Shown here one piece after another: positions 8,433-64,000 of a stretch of DNA of 64,000 nt; the stretch's first letter is position 1, and each line of letters starts with the position of its first letter. Source of the DNA: Candidatus Venteria ishoeyi (GTDB lineage: Bacteria > Pseudomonadota > Gammaproteobacteria > Beggiatoales > Beggiatoaceae); assembly GCF_030378065.1 (NCBI RefSeq), contig NZ_JAUCGJ010000012.1, positions 1 to 64,000 of the forward strand, written 5' to 3'. Below the pieces are notes generated by a model. That model saw only the letters and a program-made list of their open reading frames with translations, was not told the DNA's origin and searched no databases. Position numbers and translations under genes: made by a program.

Positions 8433-8493
8433 AATAATTGTTTTTTCTCATTTCCTGATGCTATGTAGTCCAGAAGCTTTTGTGTAACACCGG

Positions 8494-9027
8494 TTACTGC
8501 TTAAATCCGCCACTGATCTGGATTTGTAATAAGCTCTCCAATGCCAGAATGGTCATGAACGCCTCATTTACCTGGGCGATATTCTGGATAAAATGGCTGG
8601 GAATATGGCTGCCAAAAGGTGGTGGGGGTTCCAGTTGCTCAGTCTCCAGGCGAATCACATCATGTACGCTGCTGACCAGTAAACCTAATAAGGTACCAGC
8701 TTGCGTATTAAAGTTTTTATTATCATCAGATTCAATATAAGCATCAACAATGACAATGCAGCTTTGTTTATCCGGTTCAATGGCTGACAGACCCAGACGC
8801 ATGGAAAGGTCAATGACGGGGACGACATGACCGCGTAAATTCAGTACACCTTTGATATAGGCTTCGGTCATGGGTAAAAATGTCAGTGGCGTATACGCAA
8901 TAATTTCTTTTACGTCATAAATTGCGATACCATAGGTGTCATGCCCAAGATGAATGCTGAGATAGCGATTACCATCTGTCTTATGGGCTTCGTGCTTGCG
9001 CTGTAATGCGGGAAGTGTCGTTGGCAT
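8494..9027 (-). CDS. cheW: CheW chemotaxis coupling protein
   Basis: Links MCP receptors to CheA. The CheW beta-barrel is seen from YLSIHLGHDTYGIAIYDVKEI through PMTEAYIKGVLNLRGHVVPVIDL to a C-terminal part with EPPPPFG. 177 residues is normal. The ATG at 9027 is chosen over an in-frame TTG upstream because GGAGG sits 5 nt before it. It is transcribed away from cheR with about 50 bp between the likely starts, so the two promoters must overlap. Confidence 0.93.
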   Translation of the reverse strand: MPTTLPALQRKHEAHKTDGNRYLSIHLGHDTYGIAIYDVKEIIAYTPLTFLPMTEAYIKGVLNLRGHVVPVIDLSMRLGLSAIEPDKQSCIVIVDAYIESDDNKNFNTQAGTLLGLLVSSVHDVIRLETEQLEPPPPFGSHIPSHFIQNIAQVNEAFMTILALESLLQIQISGGFKQ

Positions 9028-10452: not shown

Positions 10453-11639
10453 AAATGATACACGTTTTTATCATAGATGATTCTGCGGTGGTGAGACAGG
10501 CGTTTACCAATATCCTGAATGATGCGCCGGGTTTTAATTTGCTGGGAACGGCGGCAAATCCGCTGATTGCCATGCGTAAAATGCAAAAACAATGGCCGGA
10601 TGTCATTATTCTGGATATTGAAATGCCACAGATGGATGGCCTGACATTTTTACGCAAATTAATGAATGAGCGTCCAACGCCAGTCGTGATGTGCTCATCT
10701 CTGACGCAAGATGGTGCCAGTGTCACGGTGCAGGTGTTATCTGCCGGGGCTGTGGATATTATTACCAAACCGGAATCGGGTTTGCAGGATTTTTTATATG
10801 AAAGTCATCGCCAGTTACTGGATGCTTTAAGGGCGGCTTCGCAGGCAAATCTTAAGAAACTTAAACATAACCGGCAACTCTTAAATAGACCGACACCAGC
10901 GCAGAAAGTGACTGAGCTTATGCCAAAACCGGTTTCAGCGGTTAAGCCAGGGGGGATGTCAGCTACAAAAAAACAGTCTCGTAGCATCAAGATTAAAGCC
11001 GAACCCAAGTTGAGTGCTGATGCCTTATTACCGGCATTAGCACCAAGCCTGTATCCCTCATCAATGTCCGGGCGTATTATCGGTATTGGCGCATCAACAG
11101 GGGGGACGCTGGCATTAGAACTGGTTTTGCGCCAACTTCCTGTTGATATGCCGGGCATTTTAGTTGTGCAGCATATGTCAGAAAGTTTTACCGCAGCATT
11201 TGCAGCGCGTCTAAATAGTATTTGCGCTTTGGAAATCAAAGAAGCGGCGCATATGGATGATGTAAAACCGGGACGTGTGCTCATTGCACCCGGAGGTCAG
11301 CATTTATTACTAAAATATGCGCAGGGGAAATATTTTGTTGAGTTAAAAAAAGGCCCTCTGATTAATCGCCACCGGCCTTCTGTTGACATTTTATTTCGTT
11401 CAATTGCGCAAACCGCAGGTGCAATGGCGACGGGTTTGATTATGACTGGCATGGGCGATGATGGTGCCAGAGGCTTAAAAGAAATGCATAATGCCGGCGC
11501 AACAACTTTTGCACAGGATGAGGCCAGTTGCGTTGTGTTTGGGATGCCTAAAGAGGCGATTAAACTGGGGGGGGTCGATAAGGTCGTGGCTCTGGAAGCG
11601 GTTGCGAACTATTTGATGCAAGAGAGAAGCGGCGTATAA
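10449..11639 (+). CDS. cheB: Chemotaxis response regulator protein-glutamate methylesterase CheB
   Basis: Removes receptor methyl groups when phosphorylated by CheA. The receiver domain has the phospho-Asp in VIILDIEMPQMDG (Asp56). After a long linker rich in K, P and S, the catalytic domain carries the Ser-His-Asp triad: GIGASTGG (Ser216), VVQHMSESF (His242) and TGMGDDGA (Asp337/338). The 396-residue length exceeds the usual 350 because of the linker (about 135-205). It starts within the cheD stop (ATGA). Confidence 0.95.
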   Translation: MKMIHVFIIDDSAVVRQAFTNILNDAPGFNLLGTAANPLIAMRKMQKQWPDVIILDIEMPQMDGLTFLRKLMNERPTPVVMCSSLTQDGASVTVQVLSAGAVDIITKPESGLQDFLYESHRQLLDALRAASQANLKKLKHNRQLLNRPTPAQKVTELMPKPVSAVKPGGMSATKKQSRSIKIKAEPKLSADALLPALAPSLYPSSMSGRIIGIGASTGGTLALELVLRQLPVDMPGILVVQHMSESFTAAFAARLNSICALEIKEAAHMDDVKPGRVLIAPGGQHLLLKYAQGKYFVELKKGPLINRHRPSVDILFRSIAQTAGAMATGLIMTGMGDDGARGLKEMHNAGATTFAQDEASCVVFGMPKEAIKLGGVDKVVALEAVANYLMQERSGV

Positions 11640-50896: not shown

Positions 50897-51060
50897 AGCG
50901 TTCTTCGACATTTGAGACATTGCAGTGCAACGTCTTGACGAGAAAAATCAATACAAAAATATCGCGAGCGGGGGGGGACTATCGTCCCCCCTCTCCCCCC
51001 CTTAAATTTTTGCAGGGCAAAAATTTAATAATAAAGGGTTAAAGGGCAAAGCCCAAAGTG
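50897..51060. other. 3' region of DGR target 1 with hairpins
   Basis: Contains a worn GAGACATTGCA/TGCAACGTCT palindrome (50914-50936), a hairpin GGGGGGAC/GTCCCCCC at 50972-50991 and the VR-proximal hairpin at 51002-51028. Matching structures follow targets 2 and 3. Confidence 0.8.
51002..51028 (-). other. VR-proximal hairpin, target 1
   Basis: TTAAATTTTTGC pairs with GCAAAAATTTAA around the 3-nt loop AGG (12-bp stem), 41 nt beyond the VR. Targets 2 and 3 have an 11-bp stem in the same place with a different sequence (TAAATATTCGC), so pairing is kept while sequence changed. Confidence 0.8.
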
Positions 51061-52737
51061 CTAATAAATCCTGGCGACACGAAAACCAACATCGAGGCTG
51101 CGTTCCGAAGGCCCCCCGCCGCTGCGGTAAGCAGAACGCACCCAGTCCGGTTTGCTGTTCCAGGAGCCGCCGCGCAACACGCGCCTTTCATTATCTTTTT
51201 TATTCAACAAACAGGTTTGTTCCTGTCCCTGATATTTCTTTTCATAAACGGAACAAGTCCATTCCCAGACATTGCCCACAGTATCAAACAAACCAAAAGC
51301 ATTAGCGCTGAAACTGCCCACCGGGGCGGTTTGTTTGCCATCCCAAGTGCTGCCGCAACCGTTACAGTTGGCTTTGTTTTTGCCGATGGCATTACCCCAC
51401 CAGTATTTGCTTTCGCTGCCCGCCCGCGCCGCATATTCCCATTGCGTTTCCGTCGGCAGGCGGTAGCTGTTGCCGGTTTCCCGGCTCAGCCATTGCGTAT
51501 AAGCCACTGCGTCCAGCCAGGTCACGCAAACCACAGGATGTTTTGTGCTTTGCTGAAAATTCGCTTGCATGAAATCCTGACAGCCCCATTCATACTTAGG
51601 TTTAATGCCTTGATAATTCGTTGCCGTAACAAAAGCCTGGAATTCCTCCAGGGTGATTTCATAGCGGCTCATGGCAAAAGCCGCAACTGATACCGGATGC
51701 ACGGGTTGTTCGTCATCGCTCCCGCCGCCCTGAATATCCCCCATGCGGAAATGACCGGCAGGAATTGAAACCATTTGCGGGCCTTGCTGAGCATTGCGCA
51801 ACTTGTCCTGAAAAATTTCACCCGCAACCGGTTCTGCCTGGATTTTTTCCCTTACCTGCCCACAGCTTCCCAGACACACCTGCCCGAACAACATCCCCTC
51901 CACCACCGGATGCTGCTGATAGACCGCAGGCAACCCCTGATTCTGCTGTTCCATTTGCTGCACTGCGTTGCCTATGGCCTGCATCAAATGCGTATTCGCG
52001 CCGCCGCGCAGGGCTGGCAACAAATGCCGGGTAAAATCACTGTTGCGCCGTTTATCATCGCTCCAGGCGCGGTAACTGTGCAAAGTCGCGTGTACCACCA
52101 TCATGCCATTGATAGGGTTCATCGGGCGGAATTCGCCGCCGCCGCTGAAACCTTTGCTTTTTTTAAGGATAAACTTGTCGCGGCAGGCATCTAATATCAT
52201 CAGGCGGGTACGGGTGGAAGCGGCTTCAAGCCTATCCTTGATATTGTGGGCATTAACGCCATGCCCTTTGAATTTTGCCGGGTCTTCCTTGGGAAAATTC
52301 ACCCCCACCGGCAACAGATAATTGGCGCTTTCCTGGGGGCGGTTTAAGTCCTGTACATACACGCCATGCCCGGAATAATAAAAAATCACTTCACTGTCGG
52401 GATGTTGATGCAAACGCGCAAGCAGTTGATCCACGGCATTATCCATTTGCATTTTTGTGGCATTAATCAGAGGGCGGTTTTTGCCCTGCTGATTGACCAG
52501 CGTAAAACCAAAGCCTTTAAGCAGCTTTGCCACATCCCGTGCATCATTCGCCGGATTAGGCAGAGGCGGCGCGTCATTGATAAAATCCCGGCGCTGCGGG
52601 TAATCGCCATTGCCAATGACCAGCGCATAACGGTTTTGCGCGTGGACGGAGGCCATCAACAGCATAAAACCCAAAAAAATATACATTTTTAGCATTAATA
52701 AAACCCTCATCGTATAAATATTTTTCGACATTTTCAT
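51061..52737 (-). CDS. DGR target 1: exported caspase-like / FGE-sulfatase-domain protein
   Basis: 558 residues from the ATG at 52737 (GGGGGAG site 5 nt upstream). A signal peptide (about residues 10-33) is followed by a C14-type caspase domain with RYALVIGNGDYP, FYYSGHG (His124) and MILDACRD (Cys185). A linker leads to an FGE-sulfatase domain: MVSIPAGHFRMGDI, CVTWLDAVAYTQWLSRETG, YRLPTETQWEYAARAG, GLFDTVGNVWEW and RRVLRGGSW. The last ~38 residues are the variable repeat. The FGE fold is a C-type-lectin-like platform known from DGR-diversified proteins. It is divergent from the HTH-like gene with 55 bp between starts. Confidence 0.93.
   Translation of the reverse strand: MKMSKNIYTMRVLLMLKMYIFLGFMLLMASVHAQNRYALVIGNGDYPQRRDFINDAPPLPNPANDARDVAKLLKGFGFTLVNQQGKNRPLINATKMQMDNAVDQLLARLHQHPDSEVIFYYSGHGVYVQDLNRPQESANYLLPVGVNFPKEDPAKFKGHGVNAHNIKDRLEAASTRTRLMILDACRDKFILKKSKGFSGGGEFRPMNPINGMMVVHATLHSYRAWSDDKRRNSDFTRHLLPALRGGANTHLMQAIGNAVQQMEQQNQGLPAVYQQHPVVEGMLFGQVCLGSCGQVREKIQAEPVAGEIFQDKLRNAQQGPQMVSIPAGHFRMGDIQGGGSDDEQPVHPVSVAAFAMSRYEITLEEFQAFVTATNYQGIKPKYEWGCQDFMQANFQQSTKHPVVCVTWLDAVAYTQWLSRETGNSYRLPTETQWEYAARAGSESKYWWGNAIGKNKANCNGCGSTWDGKQTAPVGSFSANAFGLFDTVGNVWEWTCSVYEKKYQGQEQTCLLNKKDNERRVLRGGSWNSKPDWVRSAYRSGGGPSERSLDVGFRVARIY
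51070..51183 (-). repeat. DGR variable repeat 1
   Basis: 114 nt matching the TR at 59946-60060 (without its first base); 16 differences within the variable core, all at TR adenines. The invariant 3' part is GTTGGTTTTCGTGTCGCCAG-G. The target gene stop follows six bases later. Confidence 0.95.
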
Positions 52738-52792
52738 TTTTCTCCCCCGCCAGTGATACATTAAGCCCAAACTAAAATCTAAGGAAGACATC

Positions 52793-53794
52793 ATGATGGA
52801 TGAAACCGATCACAGTGTGGACAAAACCCTCAAAAAACACTTGCATCAGCTTTGCGTGGACAGCTACGGCGAGGATTTGCTGGATTTATTATGCACCATT
52901 GCCAGCGACAGCAGCCGGGAAAGTATGGCGGCACTGGTGGAACAATGGATAGACAAGCTTATTTTACCTGCCCTGCAACAGGCTGCGCAAAAAAAACAAC
53001 AGCACTTAGCGCATGGATTATGGGGGGATGCACAACAAAAAGCCACTTTTAGCCTGATGTTCAGCCGCCGTCTGGATGCCAACACCTGCGCAAAACTGCA
53101 AGCTTACTGGTGCATGGAGCAACAGGAAATTCAGCAACTGGAACCTGCGCAAAAAATTCTGCACAATCTGTTGAATCAATATCTTTCTGATTTAAATCCT
53201 TTTTCCAACAAGGAAAAAATCTGGCGACAAATTGATAAAGCAATCAAACACCTGGAAAATGAAAAAAAACACCAGGATTTATTTTTTTATAAGGATTCCG
53301 CACGTCTGGCAAGTGATTTACTCGCACTCTACCAAAGGCCGCAACCGCCTAAAGGCATCACCATTCCCGAGCCTTTCCGCACGCAGCAAAGCCCTCGTGA
53401 ACTGAAAGAAAAAATGCTGGCCTATTTATATGAATTTCGTGTTTACAACCAGGGGCAGACTGCTGTGGATACGCAATTAATCGGTCGGCATGTGCCGGTC
53501 ATGCAACTGGACTGGGAAAATATGCAGCCCTGCTTTGAACGCCTGCCAGCAAAAGAGCGCAAAGCGGCTGAAGCCAAAGTTCAGGAATACCGCGATACGC
53601 AAAGCAAAAAATGGAGCCAGCGCCAACTGGCAAAAGTGGCAGGCATGAACCGCGAAACCTGGAAAAAACATTACGATCTGGCGCAGCCTAAGTTACTGGA
53701 CTGCCTGAAACAATTAATGCTTGAAATTGGCGATGAAAACATTGAAACCAGCGGTGATGGCTATGTCGTGACCCCGGAACAGGACAAGGAGTAA
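52793..53794 (+). CDS. Unknown protein with HTH-like C-terminus, first gene of the DGR-linked run
   Basis: 333 residues with mostly helical sequence. No family recognised. The C-terminal part KKWSQRQLAKVAGMNRETWKK looks like a helix-turn-helix, as in sigma-factor region 4 or a regulator, and the helical N-terminus could be a sigma-like core; this is inference. AAGGA lies before two adjacent ATG codons. Next gene starts 5 bp after the stop, so they are co-transcribed. Its start is 55 bp from target 1. Confidence 0.6.
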   Translation: MMDETDHSVDKTLKKHLHQLCVDSYGEDLLDLLCTIASDSSRESMAALVEQWIDKLILPALQQAAQKKQQHLAHGLWGDAQQKATFSLMFSRRLDANTCAKLQAYWCMEQQEIQQLEPAQKILHNLLNQYLSDLNPFSNKEKIWRQIDKAIKHLENEKKHQDLFFYKDSARLASDLLALYQRPQPPKGITIPEPFRTQQSPRELKEKMLAYLYEFRVYNQGQTAVDTQLIGRHVPVMQLDWENMQPCFERLPAKERKAAEAKVQEYRDTQSKKWSQRQLAKVAGMNRETWKKHYDLAQPKLLDCLKQLMLEIGDENIETSGDGYVVTPEQDKE

Positions 53795-53798
53795 AACC

Positions 53799-54341
53799 AT
53801 GAACCAGCAACAACACGGCGCACAAGATTTTTTTTACGAACTGCTGGCAAACCAGACAGTCGAAAATGACTGCCAACAAATTAGTGATACGCGGATGTAC
53901 GCGATATTAACAAAAAATAGGCAGTTCACTCCGCAGGAACAACAAGCCCTGCTGGACTCCCCTTGCACCCAGGCGCGTTTTACCCTGCTGGCGGATGTGG
54001 TGAAAATGGAGCAACATGAACAACAAGCCGCATGGCCGCCCATTGAAGCACTCGCCGCCGCTGAGAAAAGCATACATAAACTGGAATTTGAAGTAAGCGA
54101 TTATTATCACCTGACTTTATTCCCTATAGATGCCAAAGGTACAGACTGGGAAATCCTGCTGACAATTGCTCCAAAGCAACGCGCAATGTTTCAGGCGGGT
54201 ATACAACTGCTTGACGAGCAGGGGCTGGTCTGGTTACAGGGGCAATTAGACGCACAAGGACAAATCAGTGGTTTCTGGGAGCAGGAGGTTAATTTGTGGG
54301 ATTATATACACGACCATACCCTGCGTATCCAGGCTCTGTAG
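53799..54341 (+). CDS. Unknown protein co-transcribed with the HTH-like gene
   Basis: 180 residues, acidic and glutamine-rich, without signal peptide or membrane helix; begins MNQQQHGAQDFFYELLANQ. The pairing with the preceding protein could mean a regulator/anti-regulator pair, which is only a suggestion. Its stop TAG is the first base triplet of a palindrome (GAGACGTAGC...GCTACGTCTC), which may act as a terminator. Confidence 0.6.
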   Translation: MNQQQHGAQDFFYELLANQTVENDCQQISDTRMYAILTKNRQFTPQEQQALLDSPCTQARFTLLADVVKMEQHEQQAAWPPIEALAAAEKSIHKLEFEVSDYYHLTLFPIDAKGTDWEILLTIAPKQRAMFQAGIQLLDEQGLVWLQGQLDAQGQISGFWEQEVNLWDYIHDHTLRIQAL

Positions 54342-54363
54342 AGACGTAGCACGGCTACGTCTC
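54341..54363. repeat. GAGACGTAGC palindrome overlapping a stop codon
   Basis: GAGACGTAGC (54341-54350) and GCTACGTCTC (54354-54363) with three bases between. Family member; see 39027, 58403, 58481, 61141 and 61290. Confidence 0.85.
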
Positions 54364-54397
54364 ACCCCAAACGAAGCCACCAAAAAGGAGTATTCAA

Positions 54398-55630
54398 ATG
54401 GCAAGCCTTATTGATTATGACGTGTATTTCCCCCTTAAAGGTCATGTCTCGCGTTTAATGCCGGTGACAGTCACCAATTATAGAGAAAATGCCAAAGAGT
54501 ATGATCGGGCGCGTTGCGCGAATAAAAGCAAAAATCAGGAAGTCAACCAGATACTGGAATGCAGCCGTGAACGGGAAAGCCCGACAAGCGCCGCCTTATC
54601 GGTTTATGTCACGTTTGATAAGAATAAACGCGCCACATTCAACAGCAGCAGCTACACGCTGGCACTGGCGTTGGCGGATAAATGCGCCCGTTTTACCCCC
54701 TTTCCCGGCAAACTGGTGGCAACAGGTCGCCTGCTGGCGGAAAACAGGATAGGTAAAATCGGACATTTTCAGGAAAAACTGCAAACCATTGCCCAGGCAC
54801 TGGCGGCAAAGGAACTGCACCAAGGCGATGTGCTGATTTATCCGGCGGAAAATGAACAACAGGCCAGCGGGGAAGAACGGCAGTTATTAAAACAACTCCG
54901 GCAACAAGGTCTGCAACTGCGCGCGGCAAACAATCTTGAAGCATTAAGCGATCTCTGGAGCCAGCGCCGACAGCCGGAAAAGCGCAGCACGCAGCACTTT
55001 GCCCTGCTGAGTGTTGTATTGCTGCTGGCAACTGCCAGCGTCTTCTTCTGGCCGGCAAGTGCCGTGAAAAATACCCCGCCGGTTGTCATGCCGGTTATCA
55101 CAAAGGCAAGCGACTGCACCAGCCTGCCGCTGGATGTGGCAAGGCTGCAACGCTGCATTGAACCGGACTTGCTCAATCCGGCGGATTTTCAAGTGGATTA
55201 CAGCTACCGCCAGGTTAAGGAGAATTATGCCCAGGTCTACCCCTTGTTAGATAAAGCCGTTTTACACGTCCATGATCGTTTCAAGATTCACCTCACCTCA
55301 CCACAGGACGCTTATGTTTATCTCTATCTATACGACAGCCACGGAGAACTGCATGACTTAATGACACTCTCAAAAAAATCTCACGCCATCAGTCGTGATC
55401 AATCCATCACCCTGCCCTCGGCAAAAACTAACTTCACCCTGGATGATCAAACCGGTACGGAAACCTTATATTTTCTCGCCAGCCGGGTGCCGGAAACGGC
55501 CTTGCAGGCACAATATCAGGCACTGAAAACCGCCCGTGACCAGGGACGGCACGAACAAGTTAAACAACTGCAACAACCGCTGCTGGCGTACCTGCAAAAG
55601 CACCAGCAACGTTATTTTTTACACCAGTAG
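54398..55630 (+). CDS. Lon-like protease-fold / TM / DUF4384 protein
   Basis: 410 residues. The N-terminal 160 residues resemble the Lon S16 proteolytic domain (SSSYTLALALADK, GKLVATGRLL, GDVLIYPAENEQ); the position of the catalytic Lys reads GHFQEK instead of GGLKEK, so the site may be inactive. A TM helix near 207-225 (FALLSVVLLLATASVFFW) places the C-terminal DUF4384 domain (FKIHLTSPQDAYVYLYLYDS, TLDDQTGTETLYFLAS) outside the inner membrane. It sits in the run leading to DGR target 2. Confidence 0.75.
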   Translation: MASLIDYDVYFPLKGHVSRLMPVTVTNYRENAKEYDRARCANKSKNQEVNQILECSRERESPTSAALSVYVTFDKNKRATFNSSSYTLALALADKCARFTPFPGKLVATGRLLAENRIGKIGHFQEKLQTIAQALAAKELHQGDVLIYPAENEQQASGEERQLLKQLRQQGLQLRAANNLEALSDLWSQRRQPEKRSTQHFALLSVVLLLATASVFFWPASAVKNTPPVVMPVITKASDCTSLPLDVARLQRCIEPDLLNPADFQVDYSYRQVKENYAQVYPLLDKAVLHVHDRFKIHLTSPQDAYVYLYLYDSHGELHDLMTLSKKSHAISRDQSITLPSAKTNFTLDDQTGTETLYFLASRVPETALQAQYQALKTARDQGRHEQVKQLQQPLLAYLQKHQQRYFLHQ

Positions 55631-55717
55631 AACCTGTTCGATATAAGCTTCTTTCAACATTTAACAGGCTGAAAACCGCTGATATCTCACATTAAATTAA
55701 TCTCAAGGAGAACAAAC

Positions 55718-56422
55718 ATGTTCAAACCAATAGTGTTTATCACCCTGCTGCTGAGCGCCAGTTTTTCAGCGCAAGCCAGTTCCCGCATTGGAAAAGGCGT
55801 TATCGTCTGCCCGGATGATCCACAGATTTGCATTGGCGTTAATCCCGTAGCACTGCTGGATACACAAACGGTATCTGGTATAAGCAAAGCTCAACAGCCA
55901 GTCACGGATATGGATATCCGCTATCACTACAGCGATGCCAGCGGCAATGGCAAGGCCGACAAGCTCGACAATGGTAAAACCCTGCATTCCGGGGACAAGT
56001 TCACCATTGAAATCAGCGCGCATGAAGACCTGTATGTGTACCTGTATCATTTTGACAGCCACAAACAACTCAATGAACTGGTAACACTGTCAGGCCAAAG
56101 CAATCACCTGAAAGCCGGAGACAAACGCACGCTGCCTGCAAAAAACAAACATTTCCGGCTGGATGACAAAACCGGCACTGAAACCCTGCACACCATTGTG
56201 TCCAAAAAACCACTGAGTAATCTGGAAAGTCTGTACCACAAAAAAGTTCTGGGGGAAGCTCAAATCCAGCGGGTCAGCAAAGGCGTGACGGTGGGAACGG
56301 ACAGTGTGAAAAAATTGGAGCCAATCGCGGAGTCAATCGTGGAAAAGGCAGATGCTGGACGGGTGATTAGCTGCCTGAAAGCCGACCATTGCCGGGAAAG
56401 TTTTATCATTTATCACCGTTAA
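55718..56422 (+). CDS. Secreted DUF4384 protein
   Basis: Signal peptide (MFKPIVFITLLLSASFSAQA) and a DUF4384 domain: FTIEISAHEDLYVYLYHFDSHK and FRLDDKTGTETLHTIVS, closely like the C-terminal part of the preceding gene. The tail has a Cys pair (SCLKADHC). DUF4384 is often found with caspase-like proteins; here that is true of the next gene. AAGGAG precedes the ATG. Confidence 0.8.
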   Translation: MFKPIVFITLLLSASFSAQASSRIGKGVIVCPDDPQICIGVNPVALLDTQTVSGISKAQQPVTDMDIRYHYSDASGNGKADKLDNGKTLHSGDKFTIEISAHEDLYVYLYHFDSHKQLNELVTLSGQSNHLKAGDKRTLPAKNKHFRLDDKTGTETLHTIVSKKPLSNLESLYHKKVLGEAQIQRVSKGVTVGTDSVKKLEPIAESIVEKADAGRVISCLKADHCRESFIIYHR

Positions 56423-56479
56423 AGATTATCCCCTGCGCGGTTGTTCATTGAGCGCCGATTGAAATAGCGGGGCATCGCC

Positions 56480-56560
56480 GTAGAGACGTATCGTTTTTCA
56501 TAGCAAGACTTTCACGGATAACACCCCTTCAAAGGGGTGTTATCCGTCATACGTCTCTAC
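56480..56560 (+). promoter_or_regulatory. Nested palindrome between the DUF4384 gene and DGR target 2
   Basis: Outer arms GTAGAGACGTA (56480-56490) and TACGTCTCTAC (56550-56560) enclose a stronger hairpin CGGATAACACCCCTT (56515-56529) / AAGGGGTGTTATCCG (56532-56546) with a 2-nt loop. It could be a terminator or attenuator controlling target 2; no T-run follows. Confidence 0.6.
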
Positions 56561-56633
56561 AGGGTGATACAGGTGGCGCATCACAAACACATCAGCGATA
56601 ATCAGGTTTCGCGTAAAAATCGGAGAAATCAAC

Positions 56634-58286
56634 ATGAAACGCCGTCAGGCATTATCCATAGTCTGCTTATTGCTGTTCACCTTATCCGCCCAGGCCAGCA
56701 ATAAAATTGCCCTGCTCATTGGCAACGGGGCTTACCCGCGCGCCAACAATCAAAACCTGTTCGGCCCCTTGCCCAATCCCAAAAACGACATTGCAGACAT
56801 GCAAAACGTATTACAAGGCTTTGGCTATCAGGTGTACGCGCTGCCCGATGCCAATAAAAAAATCATGGAAAAGGCGGTCAAATGTCTGGCGGGACAAATT
56901 AGCAGCCAGCGCCAGTGTCCGCAAAAATACCGTATCCAGAGTGGTGACACGGTGATTTTTTATTACTCCGGTCACGGTGCGCAAGCCAAAGTCCAGGGCG
57001 CGGTTAAAAATTATCTGGTGCCGGTGGGCAGACGCTACGCCGATGCCGCCGACCTGGTGGAATACGGCATCAGTGCGCGCTGGATACTGAGCAAACTGGA
57101 AAACAGCAGGGCGAAGGTTAAAGTCATGATACTGGATGCCTGCCGCGACCGCATACAACTCTCCACCGGCAAAGGTTTCGGCGACAGTGGTTTCACCCGT
57201 ATGCACCCACAGGGCGCGTTTGTCGCCTACGCCACGCAGTCCGGGCATATCGCCTGGGGCGATGACAAGCGCCGTAACAGTTTATATACCGAAAAACTGC
57301 TGGAAAACCTGAAAACCGGTGGCGGCAAGACCATTCATGAAGTGTTTCGCAAAACCCGCGACGCGGTGTTTCTTGCCACCCGTGATGACCAGGGCAAACA
57401 ACGCCAGATTCCCTGGGAGGAAGAGCAACTCATCGGCGATTTTTGTTTTGCCGGGTGCGGGCGGTTTAGCGCACAAACCGGCAGTCAGGATACGCCGCCA
57501 ACACAAATTCAGACCGGACAAACCCTGCAACGGGAAGCCAAGGGTTTTCGTGAACCACTGAAATCCGGCGGCTACGGCCCTCTGATGGTGCGCATCCCCG
57601 GCGCAGATTATGCGATGGGCACTTATGAAATCAGCGTAGGCGAATACCGCCGTTTCGAGCAAAGCAGTGGTTATCGCTCCAAAGGCGATGATTGTTATGT
57701 CGATAAAGATCAGGACGGTTCCTGGGGAAAGGTCAAAGATGCTTCCTGGCAAAAGCCTTATTTTAAGCAGAGCGCACAGCATCCGGTGGTCTGCGTCAGT
57801 TGGTCTGATGCCGTGGCCTACAGCAAATGGCTGAGCCGGGAAACCGGCAACCACTATCGCCTGCCCACCAGCGAGGAATGGGAACGGGCGGCGCGGGCGG
57901 AAACCACCACAGAGCGTTATTGGGGGGATGATGCGGACTTGGCCTGTGCTTATGCCAATGTGGGTGATCAAACGGCTAAACAAAAGTATTCAGACTGGAT
58001 GATTCATAATTGCCGGGATGGTTATGTGTATACTGCCCCGGTCGGTCAATTCAAACCCAATGCCTGGGGGTTATATGATGTATTGGGTAATGCCTGGGAA
58101 TGGACTTGTTCGCTTTATGATGGGGAACAATCTGCTTGTGCGCCGGAAAAGGGTAATGAAAGCCGCGTGTTGCGCGGCGGCTCCTGGAACTACAGACCGT
58201 ACGGGGTGCGTTCTGCTTCCCGCTTCTCCGGGAGGCCCTCGCCTCGCAACTACGATGTTGGTTTTCGTGTCGCCAGGATTTATTAG
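56634..58286 (+). CDS. DGR target 2: exported caspase-like / FGE-sulfatase-domain protein
   Basis: 550 residues with signal peptide (to about Ala21), caspase-like domain with NKIALLIGNGAYP, FYYSGHGAQ (His114) and VMILDACRDR (Cys170), then an FGE domain (MVRIPGADYAMGTYEI, VCVSWSDAVAYSKWLSRETG, YRLPTSEEWERAARA, GLYDVLGNAWEWT, RVLRGGSW) and the variable tail. This is the target immediately upstream of avd and the RT on the same strand, the usual cis target of a DGR. The FGE part lacks the IPAGxFxMG glycine pattern of targets 1 and 3, so it is more divergent. Confidence 0.94.
   Translation: MKRRQALSIVCLLLFTLSAQASNKIALLIGNGAYPRANNQNLFGPLPNPKNDIADMQNVLQGFGYQVYALPDANKKIMEKAVKCLAGQISSQRQCPQKYRIQSGDTVIFYYSGHGAQAKVQGAVKNYLVPVGRRYADAADLVEYGISARWILSKLENSRAKVKVMILDACRDRIQLSTGKGFGDSGFTRMHPQGAFVAYATQSGHIAWGDDKRRNSLYTEKLLENLKTGGGKTIHEVFRKTRDAVFLATRDDQGKQRQIPWEEEQLIGDFCFAGCGRFSAQTGSQDTPPTQIQTGQTLQREAKGFREPLKSGGYGPLMVRIPGADYAMGTYEISVGEYRRFEQSSGYRSKGDDCYVDKDQDGSWGKVKDASWQKPYFKQSAQHPVVCVSWSDAVAYSKWLSRETGNHYRLPTSEEWERAARAETTTERYWGDDADLACAYANVGDQTAKQKYSDWMIHNCRDGYVYTAPVGQFKPNAWGLYDVLGNAWEWTCSLYDGEQSACAPEKGNESRVLRGGSWNYRPYGVRSASRFSGRPSPRNYDVGFRVARIY
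58163..58277 (+). repeat. DGR variable repeat 2
   Basis: 115 nt aligned base for base with TR 59946-60060; 18 differences within the core, all where the TR has A (for example TR AAA, VR CCT; TR AAC, VR TTC). Flanks are identical to TR. Confidence 0.97.
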
Positions 58287-58319
58287 CACTTTGGGCTTTG
58301 CCCTTTAACCCTTTATTGA

Positions 58320-58344
58320 TAAATATTCGCTGTGCGAATATTTA
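58320..58344 (+). other. VR-proximal hairpin, target 2
   Basis: TAAATATTCGC pairs with GCGAATATTTA around loop TGT, 42 nt after the VR. In other DGRs a hairpin or cruciform near the VR helps homing. Confidence 0.85.
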
Positions 58345-58402
58345 CAGGGGGATTCAGGGGGACGGTAGTCCCCCGATCGCGGCATTTTTTGCCCCCCCTG
58401 TA

Positions 58403-58425
58403 GAGACGTTGCACTGCAACGTCTC
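58403..58425. repeat. GAGACGTTGCA palindrome
   Basis: GAGACGTTGCA / TGCAACGTCTC around one C. Confidence 0.9.
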
Positions 58426-58480
58426 AAACGCAGCCGTAAACCTAAATGCTCACAATTAACGTATTCATGGTAGCGGAGTT

Positions 58481-58503
58481 GAGACGTAGCAGTGCTACGT
58501 CTC
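58481..58503. repeat. GAGACGTAGCA palindrome
   Basis: GAGACGTAGCA / TGCTACGTCTC around one G, just upstream of avd. Confidence 0.9.
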
Positions 58504-58526
58504 TACGAGCCGCAAGGTAAAAAATC

Positions 58527-58877
58527 ATGCAGAAAAAACAGAAAAATCAATACGCGCAAGCCGTGCAAAATTGCCATGAATTACTGATCTGGCTGATTCA
58601 TCATCTGGATAAATTTCCCCGTGCCAGACGTTATACTCTGGGCGCGCATTTGGAAAATCGCCTACTGGAAATCCTCGAATGCCTAGTGGATGCCGCTTAC
58701 AGTCGACAAAAAACCGCGCCACTGAAACAGGCCAACAAACATCTGGAAATCTGTCGTCATCTATGGCGTATAGCATTGGAATTGCGGCTGATTTCCATGA
58801 AAAGCTATGAGCATGGTATTTTGCAGATGGATAATATCGGTCGCCAGATTGGCGGCTGGATCAGGTCATGCCAATGA
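58527..58877 (+). CDS. avd: DGR accessory variability determinant (Avd-like) protein
   Basis: 116 residues, basic and helical (QYAQAVQNCHELLIWLIHHL, RYTLGAHLENRLLEILECL, LKQANKHLEICRHLWRIA), fitting the four-helix bundle Avd that works with the RT in mutagenic cDNA synthesis. Its last codons overlap the RT start by 10 bases, so the two are coupled. Position between target 2 and the RT supports the assignment. Confidence 0.9.
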   Translation: MQKKQKNQYAQAVQNCHELLIWLIHHLDKFPRARRYTLGAHLENRLLEILECLVDAAYSRQKTAPLKQANKHLEICRHLWRIALELRLISMKSYEHGILQMDNIGRQIGGWIRSCQ

Positions 58878-59941
58878 AACGTTACGGTCATTTATGGCCT
58901 GAAATTGTCAGCCTGGATAATTTATACCTGGCCTATCGCAAAGCCCGTAAAGGCAAGCAAAATCGTGACAGCGTGGCGGACTTTTCCCTGCGCTTAGAAG
59001 CGCAATTATTGGCTTTGCAAAATGAATTAAGCAATGGCACTTATATACCCGGAGAATACCGCTTATTCACCATTTATGAAGGCAAACCGCGTTTGATTGC
59101 CGCCGCGCCATTTCGGGATCGGGTGGTGCATCATGCCTTGATGAATCTAATTGAGCCTTTGCTTGATCCCCATTTCATTGATCAGTCCTACGCTTGCCGC
59201 AAAGGAAAAGGCGTGCATAAAGCCGTTGATTATTACCAGCAGCAGGCAAAACAATATGCTTATGCCTTAAAAATGGATGTACAGGCTTATTTTCCCAGTA
59301 TTGATCATCAAATTTTGCAGACAAAAATTTCTCGTTATGTGAAAGATAAAAAAGTGTTGGATTTATTCGGGTGTATCATTGCCGGTTCACCCACTTATCC
59401 GCATCCACCTTGTTATTTTCCGGGGGATGATTTGTTTACCCCGCTTGAGCGACGGCACGGTATTCCGATTGGAAACTTAACCAGCCAGTTTCTGGCAAAT
59501 CTGTATTTGAATGATCTGGATCATCATTTTCGTTCAACCCTTAAAGTTCCGGCTTATCTGCGCTACGTTGATGATATTATCGTGCTGGCTGACAGTAAAA
59601 AATATTTATCTGAAATTCGCAAAATTACAGAAGATTATTTATTGAGTTTGCGTTTAAATCTGCATCCACGCAAAGCCCATATTGTACCCGTTAGTAAAGG
59701 CGTGGATGTGTTCGGTTATTTTGTGTATCCGCATTGCCGCCGTCTGCGCAATGAAAACGGCTATCGCTTTGTCCGTAAATTACGAAGGTTCTCCAAGGCT
59801 TATGCGCGTAATGATCTGGATTGGATAGATTTTAACGCCAGTGTACAAAGTTGGATTGGTCATGCCAGCCATGCTGATACAAAAGCCTTGCGTGAAACGC
59901 TATTTTCTGCAATGATTTTTCAGCGGGAATCCGGCAACTGA
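58868..59941 (+). CDS. DGR reverse transcriptase
   Basis: 357 residues. RT motifs: LKMDVQAYFPSID (Asp137), IPIGNLTSQFLANLYLND (motif 4, where DGR RTs have GNxxSQ) and YLRYVDDIIVLA (catalytic Asp pair, 235-236), followed by LNLHPRKAHIVPVSKGVDVFGY. No maturase or endonuclease domain, unlike group II introns. Overlaps avd and ends 4 nt before the template repeat. It should copy the TR with errors at adenines. Confidence 0.96.
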   Translation: MPMKRYGHLWPEIVSLDNLYLAYRKARKGKQNRDSVADFSLRLEAQLLALQNELSNGTYIPGEYRLFTIYEGKPRLIAAAPFRDRVVHHALMNLIEPLLDPHFIDQSYACRKGKGVHKAVDYYQQQAKQYAYALKMDVQAYFPSIDHQILQTKISRYVKDKKVLDLFGCIIAGSPTYPHPPCYFPGDDLFTPLERRHGIPIGNLTSQFLANLYLNDLDHHFRSTLKVPAYLRYVDDIIVLADSKKYLSEIRKITEDYLLSLRLNLHPRKAHIVPVSKGVDVFGYFVYPHCRRLRNENGYRFVRKLRRFSKAYARNDLDWIDFNASVQSWIGHASHADTKALRETLFSAMIFQRESGN

Positions 59942-59945
59942 GAAT

Positions 59946-60060
59946 CCGCGTGTTGCGCGGCGGCTCCTGGAACAACAAACCGAACAGGGTGCGTTCTGCT
60001 AACCGCAACAACAGGAGGCCAACGAAACGCAACAACAATGTTGGTTTTCGTGTCGCCAGG
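59946..60060 (+). repeat. DGR template repeat (TR)
   Basis: 115 nt, not in an expressed frame, 4 nt downstream of the RT stop. Between TCCTGG and GTTGG it holds 29 adenines in 69 nt, mostly as AAC codons, which cannot become stop codons by adenine changes. It matches the three VRs except at adenines, and its 3' 21 nt (GTTGGTTTTC to CCAGG) is invariant, followed by a different downstream sequence (ctacccagc) from the VRs (atttattag). Confidence 0.97.
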
Positions 60061-60247
60061 CTACCCAGCCCATACACCCGGAATATCTACGTTCAAGGAT
60101 GCAGATAGCGTGGTGATTGGGTATCCATGACCGGATTTCCCTGCCTCGCAAGGATGGGATCGCAAAATAAATTGTCAGGGATGATAGCCCTGTTGCTGGT
60201 AGCGTAATGCGAAGGTGACGGGGCTTTTTACATTTAGGGAACTTATC
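60061..60247 (+). ncRNA. Non-coding region after the TR, possible priming RNA part
   Basis: Free of open frames. In characterised DGRs the RNA just past the TR is needed for cDNA priming. Short potential pairs: TACCCA (60062-60067) with TGGGTA (60118-60123) and CAGGG/CCCTG (60176-60192). Function is inferred. Confidence 0.45.
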
Positions 60248-61102
60248 ATGCCAAGAAAACTTATCAGCTTTGATTGGGCGATTAAAAAAATCCTCAGAAG
60301 CAAGGCCAACTTCGGCATACTCGAAGGCTTTTTAAGCGAATTGCTGTTTACTGAAATCCGCATCCTTGAGGTTTTGGAAAGCGAAAGTAATCAGGATAAA
60401 GGTTTTGATAAATATAACCGGGTTGATATTAAAGTCATTGATGCCGATCAGCAGATTATTATCATTGAAATACAGTATTTGCGGGAACTGGACTATTTGC
60501 AAAGAATCCTGTTCGCCAGCGCCAAAACCATCAGCGAACACTTGACGGAAGGCACTGCCTACGCGGAAGTCAGTAAAGTGATTTCAGTGAATATTTTGTA
60601 TTTTGACTTCGGCAAGGGCGATGATTATATCTATCATGGCACCACCAACTTTATCGGAATGCACAATCACAGCGTTTTGGAACTCAACGAAGACCAGAAA
60701 AAGCTGTATAAAGCGGAGAAAATTGCGGATATTTATCCGGAATATTACTTGATTGAAGTTAAAAACTTTAATGATATTGCCAAAGACAGCCTGGATGAAT
60801 GGATTTATTTTTTTAAAAATGAGCAAATCAAGGAAGATTTTACCGCAAGAGGACTCAGGCAGGCAAAAGAAACGCTGGATGTACTGAAAATGAATGAGCA
60901 GGAACGCTACGCTTATGAATACCATCAGGAACAACTGCATTATGAAGCCAGTATGTATGAATCCAGCTATATTGCGGCAAAACTGGAAGGCAAAGCAGAA
61001 GGCATTTTAATCACCGCTAAAAATATGAAACAAGCTGGCATTCCCGTTGCAACCATTGCCCAGGTGACGGGTTTATCAATAGCGCAAATAGAAGTGCTGT
61101 AA
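60248..61102 (+). CDS. PD-(D/E)XK nuclease-fold protein, Rpn family
   Basis: 284 residues: ISFDWAIKKILRSKANFGILEGF at the start, then RVDIKVIDADQQIIIIEIQY, the D...ExQ core of the Rpn (recombination-promoting nuclease) / PDDEXK transposase-like family, and RILFASAKTI. C-terminal KAEGILITAKNMKQAGIPVATIAQVTGLSIAQIE is a helix-turn-helix-like tail common in this group. Immediately past the DGR TR. It is usually found among mobile DNA. Confidence 0.85.
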   Translation: MPRKLISFDWAIKKILRSKANFGILEGFLSELLFTEIRILEVLESESNQDKGFDKYNRVDIKVIDADQQIIIIEIQYLRELDYLQRILFASAKTISEHLTEGTAYAEVSKVISVNILYFDFGKGDDYIYHGTTNFIGMHNHSVLELNEDQKKLYKAEKIADIYPEYYLIEVKNFNDIAKDSLDEWIYFFKNEQIKEDFTARGLRQAKETLDVLKMNEQERYAYEYHQEQLHYEASMYESSYIAAKLEGKAEGILITAKNMKQAGIPVATIAQVTGLSIAQIEVL

Positions 61103-61140
61103 CATAAGCGGGTGCCGGTGCTGTATGCTATTGGATAACG

Positions 61141-61167
61141 TAAAGACGTAGCACTGCTACGTCTTTA
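61141..61167. repeat. Palindrome with compensatory change
   Basis: TAAAGACGTAGCA/TGCTACGTCTTTA; elsewhere in the family the outer pair is TAGAGAC/GTCTCTA, so G-C became A-T on both sides. Confidence 0.85.
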
Positions 61168-61369
61168 CCGCTACGCCTCGGAATTTCAAGCTGCGCTCAC
61201 ATTAACAAGCGTGAATAGCAAGCTGCTTTGTTTGATAGTATTAGCTGCGTTCAGGATTGCGCTGGTTGTGGGTTGAGACGTTGCGGGTTGAGACGTTGCA
61301 GTGCAACGTCTCTACGGGGGGGCAAAAAATGCCGCGATCGGGGGACTATCGTCCCCCTGAATCCCCCTA

Positions 61370-61394
61370 TAAATATTCGCGCGGCGAATATTTA
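61370..61394 (-). other. VR-proximal hairpin, target 3
   Basis: TAAATATTCGC pairs with GCGAATATTTA with loop GCG, 42 nt beyond the VR. Same stem sequence as target 2, different loop. Confidence 0.85.
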
Positions 61395-61427
61395 TCAATA
61401 AAGGGTTAAAGGGTAAAGCCCAAAGCG

Positions 61428-63299
61428 CTAATAAATCCTGGCGACACGAAAACCAACACTGACGTAGCGAGACGAAGGCCTCCCGGTGTAGCGGTAAGCA
61501 GAACGCACCCTGTCCGGCCCGTTGTCCCAGGAGCCGCCGCGCAACACGCGGTTTTTATTATCTTTTTTATCCGGCAAACAGGTTTTTTCCTGACCTTTAT
61601 ACTTATTTTCATAAGCCGAACAGCTCCATTCCCAGGCATTACCCACAGTATCAAATAAACCAAAAGCATTAGCACTGAAACTACCCACAGGCGCTGTTTG
61701 TTTAGCATCCCAACGGCTGCCGCAACCACGACAATTGGCTTTATTGTTGCCAATGGCATTGCCCCACCAGTATTTGCTCTCGCTGCCCACCCGCGCCGCG
61801 TATTCCCATTGCGCTTCCGTTGGCAGGTGGTAGCCGTTGCCGGTTTCCCGGCTCAGCCACTCAGTATAAGCCACAGCATCCAGCCAGGTGATACAGACAA
61901 CAGGATGATTGGCAGTTTGGCTGAAATGGGGCTGCATAAATGCCTTGCAGCCCCATTCATTGCTAGGTTTTACGCCTTGATAGCCCGTTGCCTGCACAAA
62001 AGACTGAAACTCCCCCAGGGTGATTTCATGGCGACTCATGGCAAACGCCGCAACAGATACCTGATGCACAGGTTGCTCATCACTACCCCCACCACCCTGA
62101 ATATCCCCCATGCGAAAACTACCGGCGGGAATCGAGGCCATTTGCGGGCCTTTTGTGCCATTGCGCAACGTATCCTGAAAAAAGCTGCTGGCACTACCGG
62201 TGCTGGTTGGCAAAACTGGCGGTGTTGTTGGCGCATTTTGCGCAAACTGGCGCGCCACTGGCGTGGTGGTCACTACCTGCGCCCTTTTTTCCATCGCTTC
62301 TGCCGTCTGCCGCGCTGCCAGCAACTGTTGTTGCAAACGGCTGTTTTCCTCGCGTAAGCCTTGTGCTTGCGCTTGTTCTTGCAGCCGCGCCTGTTTTGCG
62401 CCCAGTTGCTGTTTCAAACGGTTGTTTTCCTGGCGTATACGCTGTGTCTGTGACCAGTCAAGACATTGCCCCAGGCAGAAATCACCGCTCAGGGTGCCGG
62501 TTTCCACGCGCGGCATTTGCGCGCTGCCGTGGGCTTTGGCATCGGTAACCACCGCCGCGCCCGCGTATTTGAGCAGTTGTTCAAAAGGCAGCGCGGCATA
62601 GTCGGACATGGCTTGCAGCACCTTGCCGGTGTAGACGCTGGTGCTTAAATTGTGATCCACGTAAGCCGCCGTGCCCAGCGTGCTGGCAAAACCGATAATG
62701 GAGCCTTCCGGCTGCATATCCCGCATCCCCCGTTCGCCAACACCTTTGCTGTTGCCGACATATTCCCGGCAGGCATCGAGCAGCATAATACGCACCCCGG
62801 CGTTGGAGGCTTCCAAATCACGTTTAATGGCGTGGGCGCTGACGGCGGCAGATTTAATACTGCCTTCGGTGTGAATTGTTCGCCCTACCGGAATCAGGTA
62901 ATTTTCACTGTTGCCGCGATAATGTACGCCGTGACCGGAATAATAAAATAATACTGTGCCGCCACGGGGAATATTTTTGATAAAATTAGCAATCTGCCTG
63001 TCCATTTGGCCTAAGTTGGCATCTTTGAGCACGGTGCTTTGGAAACCATAAGCCGCCAGTGCTTTTTGCATGTGTTCAACATCATTGCGCGGGTTATGAC
63101 CGAGGCTGCGGAACATGCCTTGATTGCCATAGTTGCTGTTGCCTATCAGCAGCGCCAGACGCGGGCCGCTATGCCGGGCGGCATTGCCTGTGGCGTTGGC
63201 GGCAGGTGATTGAGTACTGCCTTTGCCGGTTTGCTTGGCGCTGCCGCTACAGGCTGAAAGCAGCACGGTACACAGCAATAAAGCCATCAGAGTTTTCAT
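61428..63299 (-). CDS. DGR target 3: caspase-like / coiled-coil / FGE-sulfatase lipoprotein
   Basis: 623 residues. Lipobox LLSAC (Cys17) makes it a lipoprotein. Caspase-like domain with LALLIGNSNYG, FYYSGHGVHY (His123) and IMLLDACREY (Cys177), then a coiled coil (about 275-340: QTQRIRQENNRLKQQLGAKQ), then the FGE domain (MASIPAGSFRMGDIQGGGG, CITWLDAVAYTEWLSRETG, YHLPTEAQWEYAARVG, GLFDTVGNAWEWS, RVLRGGSWDN) with the variable tail. The FGE part is close to target 1. It is the trans target on the other side of the RT. Confidence 0.94.
   Translation of the reverse strand: MKTLMALLLCTVLLSACSGSAKQTGKGSTQSPAANATGNAARHSGPRLALLIGNSNYGNQGMFRSLGHNPRNDVEHMQKALAAYGFQSTVLKDANLGQMDRQIANFIKNIPRGGTVLFYYSGHGVHYRGNSENYLIPVGRTIHTEGSIKSAAVSAHAIKRDLEASNAGVRIMLLDACREYVGNSKGVGERGMRDMQPEGSIIGFASTLGTAAYVDHNLSTSVYTGKVLQAMSDYAALPFEQLLKYAGAAVVTDAKAHGSAQMPRVETGTLSGDFCLGQCLDWSQTQRIRQENNRLKQQLGAKQARLQEQAQAQGLREENSRLQQQLLAARQTAEAMEKRAQVVTTTPVARQFAQNAPTTPPVLPTSTGSASSFFQDTLRNGTKGPQMASIPAGSFRMGDIQGGGGSDEQPVHQVSVAAFAMSRHEITLGEFQSFVQATGYQGVKPSNEWGCKAFMQPHFSQTANHPVVCITWLDAVAYTEWLSRETGNGYHLPTEAQWEYAARVGSESKYWWGNAIGNNKANCRGCGSRWDAKQTAPVGSFSANAFGLFDTVGNAWEWSCSAYENKYKGQEKTCLPDKKDNKNRVLRGGSWDNGPDRVRSAYRYTGRPSSRYVSVGFRVARIY
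61437..61550 (-). repeat. DGR variable repeat 3
   Basis: 114 nt aligned with the TR; 18 differences in the core, all at TR adenines (for example TR AAA, VR GGG; TR AAA, VR TCT). Confidence 0.97.
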
Positions 63300-63521: not shown

Positions 63522-64000
63522 TCATGGCATTTTGACAAACTCCACCCGCCGGTTCCAGCGCCGGTCGTGATCGCTTTGTTGTTGTAAATTGCCGCGCAGG
63601 GGTTGGGATTCACCATAGGCGGCAATTTGTAGCCGCGCCGGGTCAATTTGATACATCCTCACCAGATAGTCTTTGACACTTTGCGCGCGTTGTTGGGAGA
63701 GTTGTAAGTTATAGGCAGCATCGCCAATATAATCCGTATGCCCGTGAATGCTGAAGTGCATGTCGGCAAGGTTTTGCAAGGCGCTGCCCCATTCAGCCAG
63801 CAGCGCATAAAATTCGGGTTTTAATGCGCTGGCATCAAATTCAAACAAAACGCCAACCCGATCCGGTTGGATGCTGACACCTTTACTGACACCTTTGGCA
63901 ACCCGTGTGCTGCGGCCTGCGCAGTGTCCGTGACGGTAAAAGTTTTCAATTTCTGCCTGGGTTTTGAGAAAACATAAACCATTTTGCACATCTGCGCGTG
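63522..64000 (-). CDS. OmpA-family C-terminal domain protein (5' end outside window)
   Basis: The frame stays open to the window edge; the apparent start at 63989 (GTG) is inside the real gene because upstream codons continue. The C-terminal peptidoglycan-binding OmpA domain is plain: LFEFDASALKPEFYALLAEW, HFSIHGHTDYIGDAAYNLQLSQ, RAQSVKDYLV, LQIAAYGESQPL and RRWNRRVEF. It is transcribed in the same direction as target 3. Confidence 0.9.
   Translation of the reverse strand, partial: RADVQNGLCFLKTQAEIENFYRHGHCAGRSTRVAKGVSKGVSIQPDRVGVLFEFDASALKPEFYALLAEWGSALQNLADMHFSIHGHTDYIGDAAYNLQLSQQRAQSVKDYLVRMYQIDPARLQIAAYGESQPLRGNLQQQSDHDRRWNRRVEFVKMP

What the first reader, a model, noticed from the sequence alone, without database searches (positions are those of the whole stretch)
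51061..63299. Complete diversity-generating retroelement with three target genes
Seen: avd (58527), RT (58868, YVDD, IGNLTSQ), TR (59946-60060) and three VRs (51070, 58163, 61437) that match the TR except at adenines. Known: TR-to-VR adenine mutagenesis, an Avd-like protein and this RT type define DGRs. Inference: one RT diversifies three genes, one in cis and two in trans on the opposite strand.
Basis: partly seen in the sequence, partly recalled or inferred. Interest (0 to 1): 0.97.

Follow-up and report, generated by a model that had tools for sequence, protein, structure and literature searches.

The report
Bacterial hypermutation cassette diversifying three caspases
This bacterial chromosome carries an intact diversity-generating retroelement, a reverse transcriptase system that rewrites chosen gene ends at random, aimed at three neighbouring genes for apparently exported caspase-like sensor proteins; the kind of system is known, but its landing sites carry a regular 7-8-base repeat that I found described nowhere and that recurs in many related systems.

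Summary
The TR (59947-60060) and three VRs agree at all 84 non-adenine positions and differ at 16, 18 and 18 of 30 adenines, with no other mismatch. Avd matches the DGR Avd family. The RT groups with DGR RTs, apart from group II introns (100/100). All three targets are signal-bearing caspase (Peptidase_C14) plus FGE-type C-type-lectin proteins with an intact His-Cys dyad; the VR covers the stretch that holds the catalytic cysteines in true FGE.
The TR is followed by an RNA hairpin that covaries strongly across 12 loci.
Comparing about 100 DGR loci, a 7-8-nt array recurs widely (CTTT core in cellular DGRs, TCTG core in viral ones), well above shuffles and ordinary gene ends. I found no paper describing it, but only one open-access library was searched.
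The locus is a new member of a known kind (cellular DGR diversifying putative antigen sensors). Activity in the population was not testable.

The parts
51061..52737 (-). target gene 1: signal peptide + caspase (Peptidase_C14) + FGE-type C-type-lectin domain, 558 aa from the likely start (577 aa from the upstream ATG at 52794)
   Evidence: Pfam PF00656 1.1e-25 and PF03781 6.2e-63; dyad His124/Cys185 and hydrophobic N-terminus
51070..51183 (-). VR1
   Evidence: 16 of 30 TR adenines changed, 0 of 84 other positions
51033..51058 (-). periodic CTTT array after VR1
   Evidence: same offsets as VR2 and VR3
51002..51028 (-). AT-rich hairpin after VR1, stem 12, loop 3, both arms changed relative to VR2 and VR3
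50972..50991 (-). GRNA-loop hairpin GGGGGGAC[GATA]GTCCCCCC
   Evidence: consensus of PMC3240598
54398..55630 (+). neighbour with DUF4384, role unknown
   Evidence: PF14326
55718..56422 (+). neighbour with DUF4384 and a signal-like N-terminus, directly upstream of target 2
   Evidence: DUF4384 also beside the caspase target in L046
56634..58286 (+). target gene 2: signal peptide + caspase + FGE-type C-type-lectin domain, 550 aa
   Evidence: PF00656 2.5e-32, PF03781 1.9e-49; dyad His114/Cys170
58164..58277 (+). VR2
   Evidence: 18 of 30 TR adenines changed, 0 of 84 others
58289..58314 (+). periodic CTTT array after VR2
58320..58344 (+). AT-rich hairpin TAAATATTCGC[TGT]GCGAATATTTA
58357..58374 (+). 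GRNA-loop hairpin GGGGGAC[GGTA]GTCCCCC
58527..58877 (+). avd
   Evidence: NF033474 3.7e-26 over cut-off, PF22296, phrog_3206
58868..59941 (+). DGR reverse transcriptase
59947..60060 (+). TR, 30 adenines, 17 variable codons, about 5e15 possible peptides per VR
60084..60107 (+). conserved hairpin in the TR RNA spacer, TATCTACGT[TCAAGG]ATGCAGATA
   Evidence: 9 of 9 pairs with double-sided changes over 12 loci, 91.7% of cells paired, score 1.113 against 0.248 shuffled, 0/500
61428..63299 (-). target gene 3: lipoprotein-type signal (LSAC) + caspase + coiled coil + FGE-type C-type-lectin domain, 623 aa
   Evidence: PF00656 1.3e-25, PF03781 1e-59; dyad His123/Cys177, lipobox
61437..61550 (-). VR3
   Evidence: 18 of 30 TR adenines changed, 0 of 84 others
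61400..61425 (-). periodic CTTT array after VR3
61369..61395 (-). AT-rich hairpin ATAAATATTCGC[CGC]GCGAATATTTAT
61340..61357 (-). GRNA-loop hairpin GGGGGAC[GATA]GTCCCCC
63522..63998 (-). OmpA-family neighbour (runs off the window), also beside the caspase target in L046
   Evidence: PF00691

Best explanation
A chromosomal diversity-generating retroelement. RNA from the TR and its structured 3' spacer is copied by the RT-Avd complex with errors opposite adenines, and the cDNA replaces the VR at the 3' end of three neighbouring genes, one on the same strand and two on the opposite strand. Each VR is marked as a target by its own 3' elements (shared IMH-like end GTTGGTTTTCGTGTCGCCAGG, a CTTT array and hairpins), which the TR lacks, so transfer runs one way. 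The products are caspase-lectin proteins with export or lipoprotein signals; the hypervariable lectin face most likely binds ligands in the periplasm or at the surface and controls the caspase domain, as an antigen sensor of a conflict or cell-death system. Shown from sequence: the anatomy, adenine-only divergence, RT kinship, domain make-up. Inferred: retrohoming activity, export, ligand sensing, link to death or defence.
For: Adenine-only TR/VR divergence; Avd and RT families; RT tree; GRNA hairpin after all three VRs, found after 20% of 54 VRs but 0.5% of 398 ordinary gene ends and 0 of 54 TRs and after 63% of 60 distinct viral DGR flanks; the 143 bp downstream of VR2 occurs in the genome only after the three VRs, apart from a short palindrome; spacer RNA hairpin with covariation; caspase dyads intact and signal sequences; VR replaces the FGE cysteine stretch; DGR-diversified caspase domains and putative sensors in other multicellular bacteria (PMC7517822; PMC10907252).
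Against: No population variation could be examined. The two opposite-strand targets are called targets by sequence alone. Signal peptides were judged by inspection, not by a trained predictor. AlphaFold gave no usable model (pLDDT 44). None of the MoxR, vWA, VMAP or STAND partners of the best-described systems was found in the neighbours searched.
Confidence: 0.9

Rival explanations
1. A once-active DGR, now silent: the VRs record past mutagenesis and no transfer happens today.
For: No population data; in Thiohalocapsa PB-PSB1 many DGR loci are degenerate (PMC10907252), and this genome also holds a likely RT-less remnant on C9.
Against: avd, RT with YVDD, TR, spacer hairpin and all three VR 3' element sets are intact; not one non-A difference in 3 x 84 positions, whereas flanking coding DNA of VR1 and VR3 differs by about 16%. 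A long-silent locus should have gathered some.
Confidence: 0.15
2. Only the same-strand target 2 is a retrohoming target; targets 1 and 3 arose by gene duplication followed by ordinary divergence or gene conversion.
For: Targets 1 and 3 are 56% identical; DNA beyond the VR is also similar (95% and 81% to that of target 2).
Against: All three VRs differ from the TR and from each other only at TR adenines (16-19 differences pairwise, 0 elsewhere), which duplication or conversion does not give; each has its own array and hairpins.
Confidence: 0.05
3. The FGE-type domain is a real enzyme and the VR tunes catalysis rather than binding.
For: Strong FGE-family homology.
Against: The VR covers the stretch that carries cysteines in FGE and none is present in the three VRs or the TR translation; known DGR targets use this fold for binding (TvpA 2y3c and 5nxl among the matches).
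Confidence: 0.03
4. The 7-8-nt array after the VR is not a DGR element but a by-product, such as slippage repeats or a terminator-like tract.
For: The core differs between cellular (CTTT) and viral (TCTG) DGRs; the prototype BPP-1 has only a 4-bp VR-hairpin spacer whose sequence can be swapped (PMC3240598); own DGR2 (L040) scores low.
Against: Same period in both groups and almost the same offsets in the window, L045 and L047, whose RTs are only 59-60% identical; 3.19 and 4.83 recurrences against 0.50 at ordinary gene ends; absent after TRs.
Confidence: 0.35

Closest known systems
BPP-1 DGR of Bordetella phage (prototype)
   Same: avd, RT, TR, VR, adenine mutagenesis, IMH-like 3' end, GC-rich hairpin with GRNA loop after the VR, structured spacer RNA
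   Different: gene order here is VR-avd-RT-TR, not VR-avd-TR-RT; chromosomal; three targets; hairpin about 79 nt rather than 4 nt from the VR, behind an array and a second hairpin; targets are caspase-lectins, not a tail fibre protein
Clade 5 cellular DGRs of multicellular bacteria, Thiohalocapsa PB-PSB1 (PMC10907252)
   Same: cellular RT lineage shared with a cyanobacterial DGR RT in my tree, FGE/CLec targets, several DGRs in one genome, DGR loci with MITE-like palindromes, effector-type domains
   Different: the targets themselves are caspase-CLec fusions with export signals; no MoxR, vWA or STAND partner in the neighbours searched; DUF4384 and OmpA neighbours instead
Orthocaspase-CLec variable proteins of cyanobacterial DGRs (PMC7517822) and metacaspase-FGE proteins (PMC3501461)
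   Same: N-terminal caspase domain joined to an FGE/CLec domain, diversified by a DGR in the cyanobacterial case
   Different: here in a gammaproteobacterium-like genome; three copies under one TR; putative secretion, one a lipoprotein; PMC3501461 read the FGE part as an enzyme
TvpA of Treponema denticola (2y3c) and the 5nxl variable protein
   Same: C-type-lectin fold with VR at the C-terminus, matched by sequence
   Different: different N-terminal parts

Membership tests
Diversity-generating retroelement | TR and VR that differ almost only at TR adenines | tested here: met
   0 of 252 non-A positions changed, 52 of 90 A positions changed
Diversity-generating retroelement | RT of the DGR lineage | tested here: met
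   ML tree of 60 RTs, 100/100 apart from group II introns; phrog_1423 391 bits
Diversity-generating retroelement | accessory Avd protein | tested here: met
   NF033474 over cut-off
Diversity-generating retroelement | target with C-type-lectin-type fold and C-terminal VR | tested here: met
   PF03781 and matches to 5nxl, 2y3c reaching the VR; by sequence only, own model failed
Diversity-generating retroelement | hairpin or cruciform downstream of VR with GRNA loop (BPP-1 type) | tested here: met
   all three VRs, absent after TR; farther from the VR than in phages
Diversity-generating retroelement | adenine-linked VR variation in a population, dependent on RT | not testable with these tools
   one genome in the genus; no reads
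Clade 5 cellular DGRs | RT inside the clade 5 of Roux et al. | tested here: inconclusive
   groups with a cyanobacterial DGR RT and with cellular RTs, apart from BPP-1-like phages, but the reference clade 5 set was not at hand
VMAP or iSTAND ternary conflict system | MoxR ATPase, vWA and VMAP or STAND partner beside the target | tested here: not met
   none among the proteins of 47.7-64 kb scanned with Pfam; genes before 47.7 kb were not scanned
Caspase-like peptidase (C14) | His-Cys dyad | tested here: met
   YYSGHG and DAC in all three; activity not testable
Formylglycine-generating enzyme | active-site cysteine pair | tested here: not met
   no cysteine in the three VRs, which cover that stretch

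The most novel reading that the evidence does not exclude
DGR target sites carry a previously undescribed recognition element: an array of 3-6 copies of a short motif every 7-8 nt between the VR and the recognition hairpin (CTTT core in this cellular group, TCTG core in viral DGRs), read by a DGR component, perhaps by the subunits of the Avd ring, and needed for efficient homing in DGRs other than BPP-1. With the TR-side spacer hairpin it would tell targets from template and allow orphan targets to be predicted.
Probability: 0.45. Interest if true: 0.72.

Novelty: new member of a known kind. Interest (0 to 1): 0.52.

Why it matters
The locus is a clean, intact example of one template diversifying three effector-type proteins at once, in a form (apparently exported caspase-lectin sensors) that would put an adaptive receptor outside the cytoplasm. 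How the mutated cDNA finds its target is described as incompletely understood (PMC12875486). If the 7-8-nt array is a real target signal, it is a simple handle on that question: it can be scrambled, moved to a reporter, and used to find targets far from any RT, as the remnant on C9 suggests.

Tried and rejected
Rfam for the spacer RNA: only chance miRNA-type matches to the palindrome near 58400-58510. Single-sequence folding of the window spacer: z = -0.55, not informative; the covariation test is what counts. Base-pairing of the array with the spacer hairpin loop (AAGG to CCTT): considered by eye, not consistent because many loops read ACGG or ATGG; dropped, not tested statistically. GRNA-only view of the hairpin in the cellular group: not general there, where 3-nt-loop hairpins are about as common. 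RT in viral contigs with the single sequence: nothing; with the alignment: 80 loci. Defence-system library: generic RT and a weak caspase match only. Orphan neighbour 52793-53794: only one weak relative in 42 other genomes of the order.
Full report
1. Observation. Over 114 bp the TR (59947-60060) has 30 adenines. VR1 differs from it at 16, VR2 at 18 and VR3 at 18 positions, every one a TR adenine; the 84 other positions are identical in all three. The VRs differ from each other at 16-19 positions, again only at TR adenines. The chance of such placement is 1e-11 to 2e-13 per VR. A scan for repeats of at least 50 bp that mismatch only at A in the last 14 kb of the window gives these three pairs and nothing else. 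A search of the whole 4.4 Mb draft genome with the TR finds no further full-length VR.

2. Proteins. Avd is over the curated cut-off of NF033474. The RT is RVT_1, with phrog_1423 at 391 bits, and its best solved relative is 8ub7, deposited as a reverse transcriptase. In a maximum-likelihood tree of 60 RTs, four annotated group II intron RTs and the C86 RT of the same genome fall outside with 100/100; the window RT sits in an 8-row clade (100/99) with RTs of the same family and a Nitrospira MAG, apart from BPP-1-like and other phage RTs. All relatives with intact loci in that clade show adenine-only TR/VR pairs of their own.

3. Targets. All three are Peptidase_C14 followed by FGE-sulfatase, with the caspase His and Cys kept. 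The N-termini look like signal sequences in targets 1 and 2 and a lipoprotein signal (LSAC) in target 3 (inspection, not a trained predictor). In alignments to solved FGE structures the VR lies on the stretch that has the FGE cysteines, and the VRs have none, so a binding rather than catalytic role is likely. The TR gives 17 variable codons and about 5e15 peptides per VR; two AAA codons could become stops. The same caspase plus FGE design is a DGR target in two other genomes of the family (L046, L052). In L046, as here, DUF4384 and OmpA-family genes stand close by, which fits an envelope location. Other relatives use nSTAND1, kinase or no recognised N-terminal domain.

4. Target marks. The DNA after each VR differs from that after the TR. 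The 143 bp after VR2 recur in the genome only after VR1 and VR3, short palindrome excepted. They hold, in order, CTTT motifs at about +11, +18, +25 and +33, an AT-rich hairpin of 11-12 bp with a 3-nt loop whose two arms both change between VR1 and VR2/VR3, and a GC-rich 7-8-bp hairpin with loop GATA or GGTA at about +79. The last fits the BPP-1 rule of a 7-10-bp GC-rich stem with loop GRNA (PMC3240598), though there it lies 4-34 bp from the VR. A GRNA hairpin follows 20% of 54 VRs in my first set, 0 of 54 TRs and 0.5% of 398 other gene ends, and 63% of 60 distinct viral flanks, mostly near +35.

5. The array. In the first 39 loci CTTT occurs 2.05 times in 75 nt after the VR and AAAG 0.21 times (p = 5e-5); 38 of 56 successive spacings are 7 or 8 nt, and 6-8 nt spacings number 40 against 16.8 expected (0 of 2000 placements). 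These loci were where I first saw the pattern, so the 80 viral loci fetched afterwards served as a fresh test of period, not of motif. They show a different core, TCTG (82% of flanks against 12% of controls), with the same period. On flanks less than 60% identical to each other, 4-mer recurrences at lag 7 and 8 are 3.19 (31 viral) and 4.83 (24 cellular) against 0.44 and 1.27 in dinucleotide shuffles and 0.50 at 1023 other gene ends (p = 6e-15 and 5e-17). Viral TR flanks lack it (0.23 at lag 7). It is not universal: BPP-1 has only a 4-bp spacer whose sequence can be swapped, and several GC-rich cellular loci score near zero. Four library searches found no description; many DGR papers are not in that library, so this is weak evidence of novelty. 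Metric and window length (4-mers, 48 nt) were chosen by me after seeing the pattern.

6. Template mark. A hairpin 24-47 nt after the TR (60084-60107) is conserved in 12 loci: 91.7% of cells paired, 9 of 9 pairs with changes on both sides, score 1.113 against 0.248 in shuffles and at most 0.244 in slid controls. The loop usually reads TYAMGG. The register was drawn from these sequences, which favours it, but slid registers fall to about 40% paired. It fits the published statement that the spacer folds to recruit RT-Avd (PMC12875486) and is probably part of that element; it has no Rfam family.

7. Comparison. The system meets every testable DGR criterion. It matches the cellular DGRs of multicellular bacteria thought to diversify antigen sensors (PMC10907252) and the orthocaspase variable proteins of cyanobacteria (PMC7517822). 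It lacks the MoxR, vWA or STAND partners in the neighbours scanned. New here are the set of three apparently exported caspase-lectins under one template, and the array, which concerns DGRs in general.

8. Limits. No reads, no second strain, a draft genome of 115 contigs, no usable structure model, organism not named by the tools. Function as a death or defence sensor is inference from domains and literature.

Noticed in passing
L040 (G000:C27:104000-122000), TR 9255-9380, VRs 8442-8567 and 11270-11366: A second, unrelated DGR in the same genome: avd-like gene overlapping the target end, 525-aa RT, targets of 1057 aa (fn3 + Lcl_C) and 163 aa (Lcl_C). Its RT falls in a different DGR branch.
   Followed up: partly
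L041 (G000:C4:1-3386), TR 969-1100 (-), VR 1389-1520 (-): A third DGR on a short contig: avd-like gene, part of an RT, collagen-like target with Lcl_C end; its VR is followed by a strongly periodic T-rich array.
   Followed up: partly
G000:C9:57552-59367 (L044, L005, L006): Two tandem FGE-type genes whose ends are identical except for a VR-like block with 23 differences. One is followed by a CTTT array, the other by a TR-spacer-like hairpin (ATTGGTAT[TTATGG]ATACCAAT); no RT match on this contig. Looks like a remnant DGR in which the TR became coding.
   Followed up: partly
window 54343, 58405, 58483, 61145, 61292 (and G000:C10:64082): Palindrome GACGTNGCANNGCNACGTC, about two dozen sites in the 4.4 Mb genome, six of them within about 10 kb at this DGR; recalls the MITE-like repeats at DGR loci in PMC10907252.
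   Followed up: partly
window 60215-61102: Rpn/PD-(D/E)XK transposase-like nuclease gene lies between the TR and target 3.
   Followed up: no
window 52793-54341: Two genes without any family match, the first with one weak relative among 42 other genomes of the order.
   Followed up: partly
L042 (G000:C86, RT at 85038-85727): 996-aa open frame with an RT part, possibly a CRISPR-associated RT fusion; outside the DGR RTs in the tree, on a long branch.
   Followed up: no
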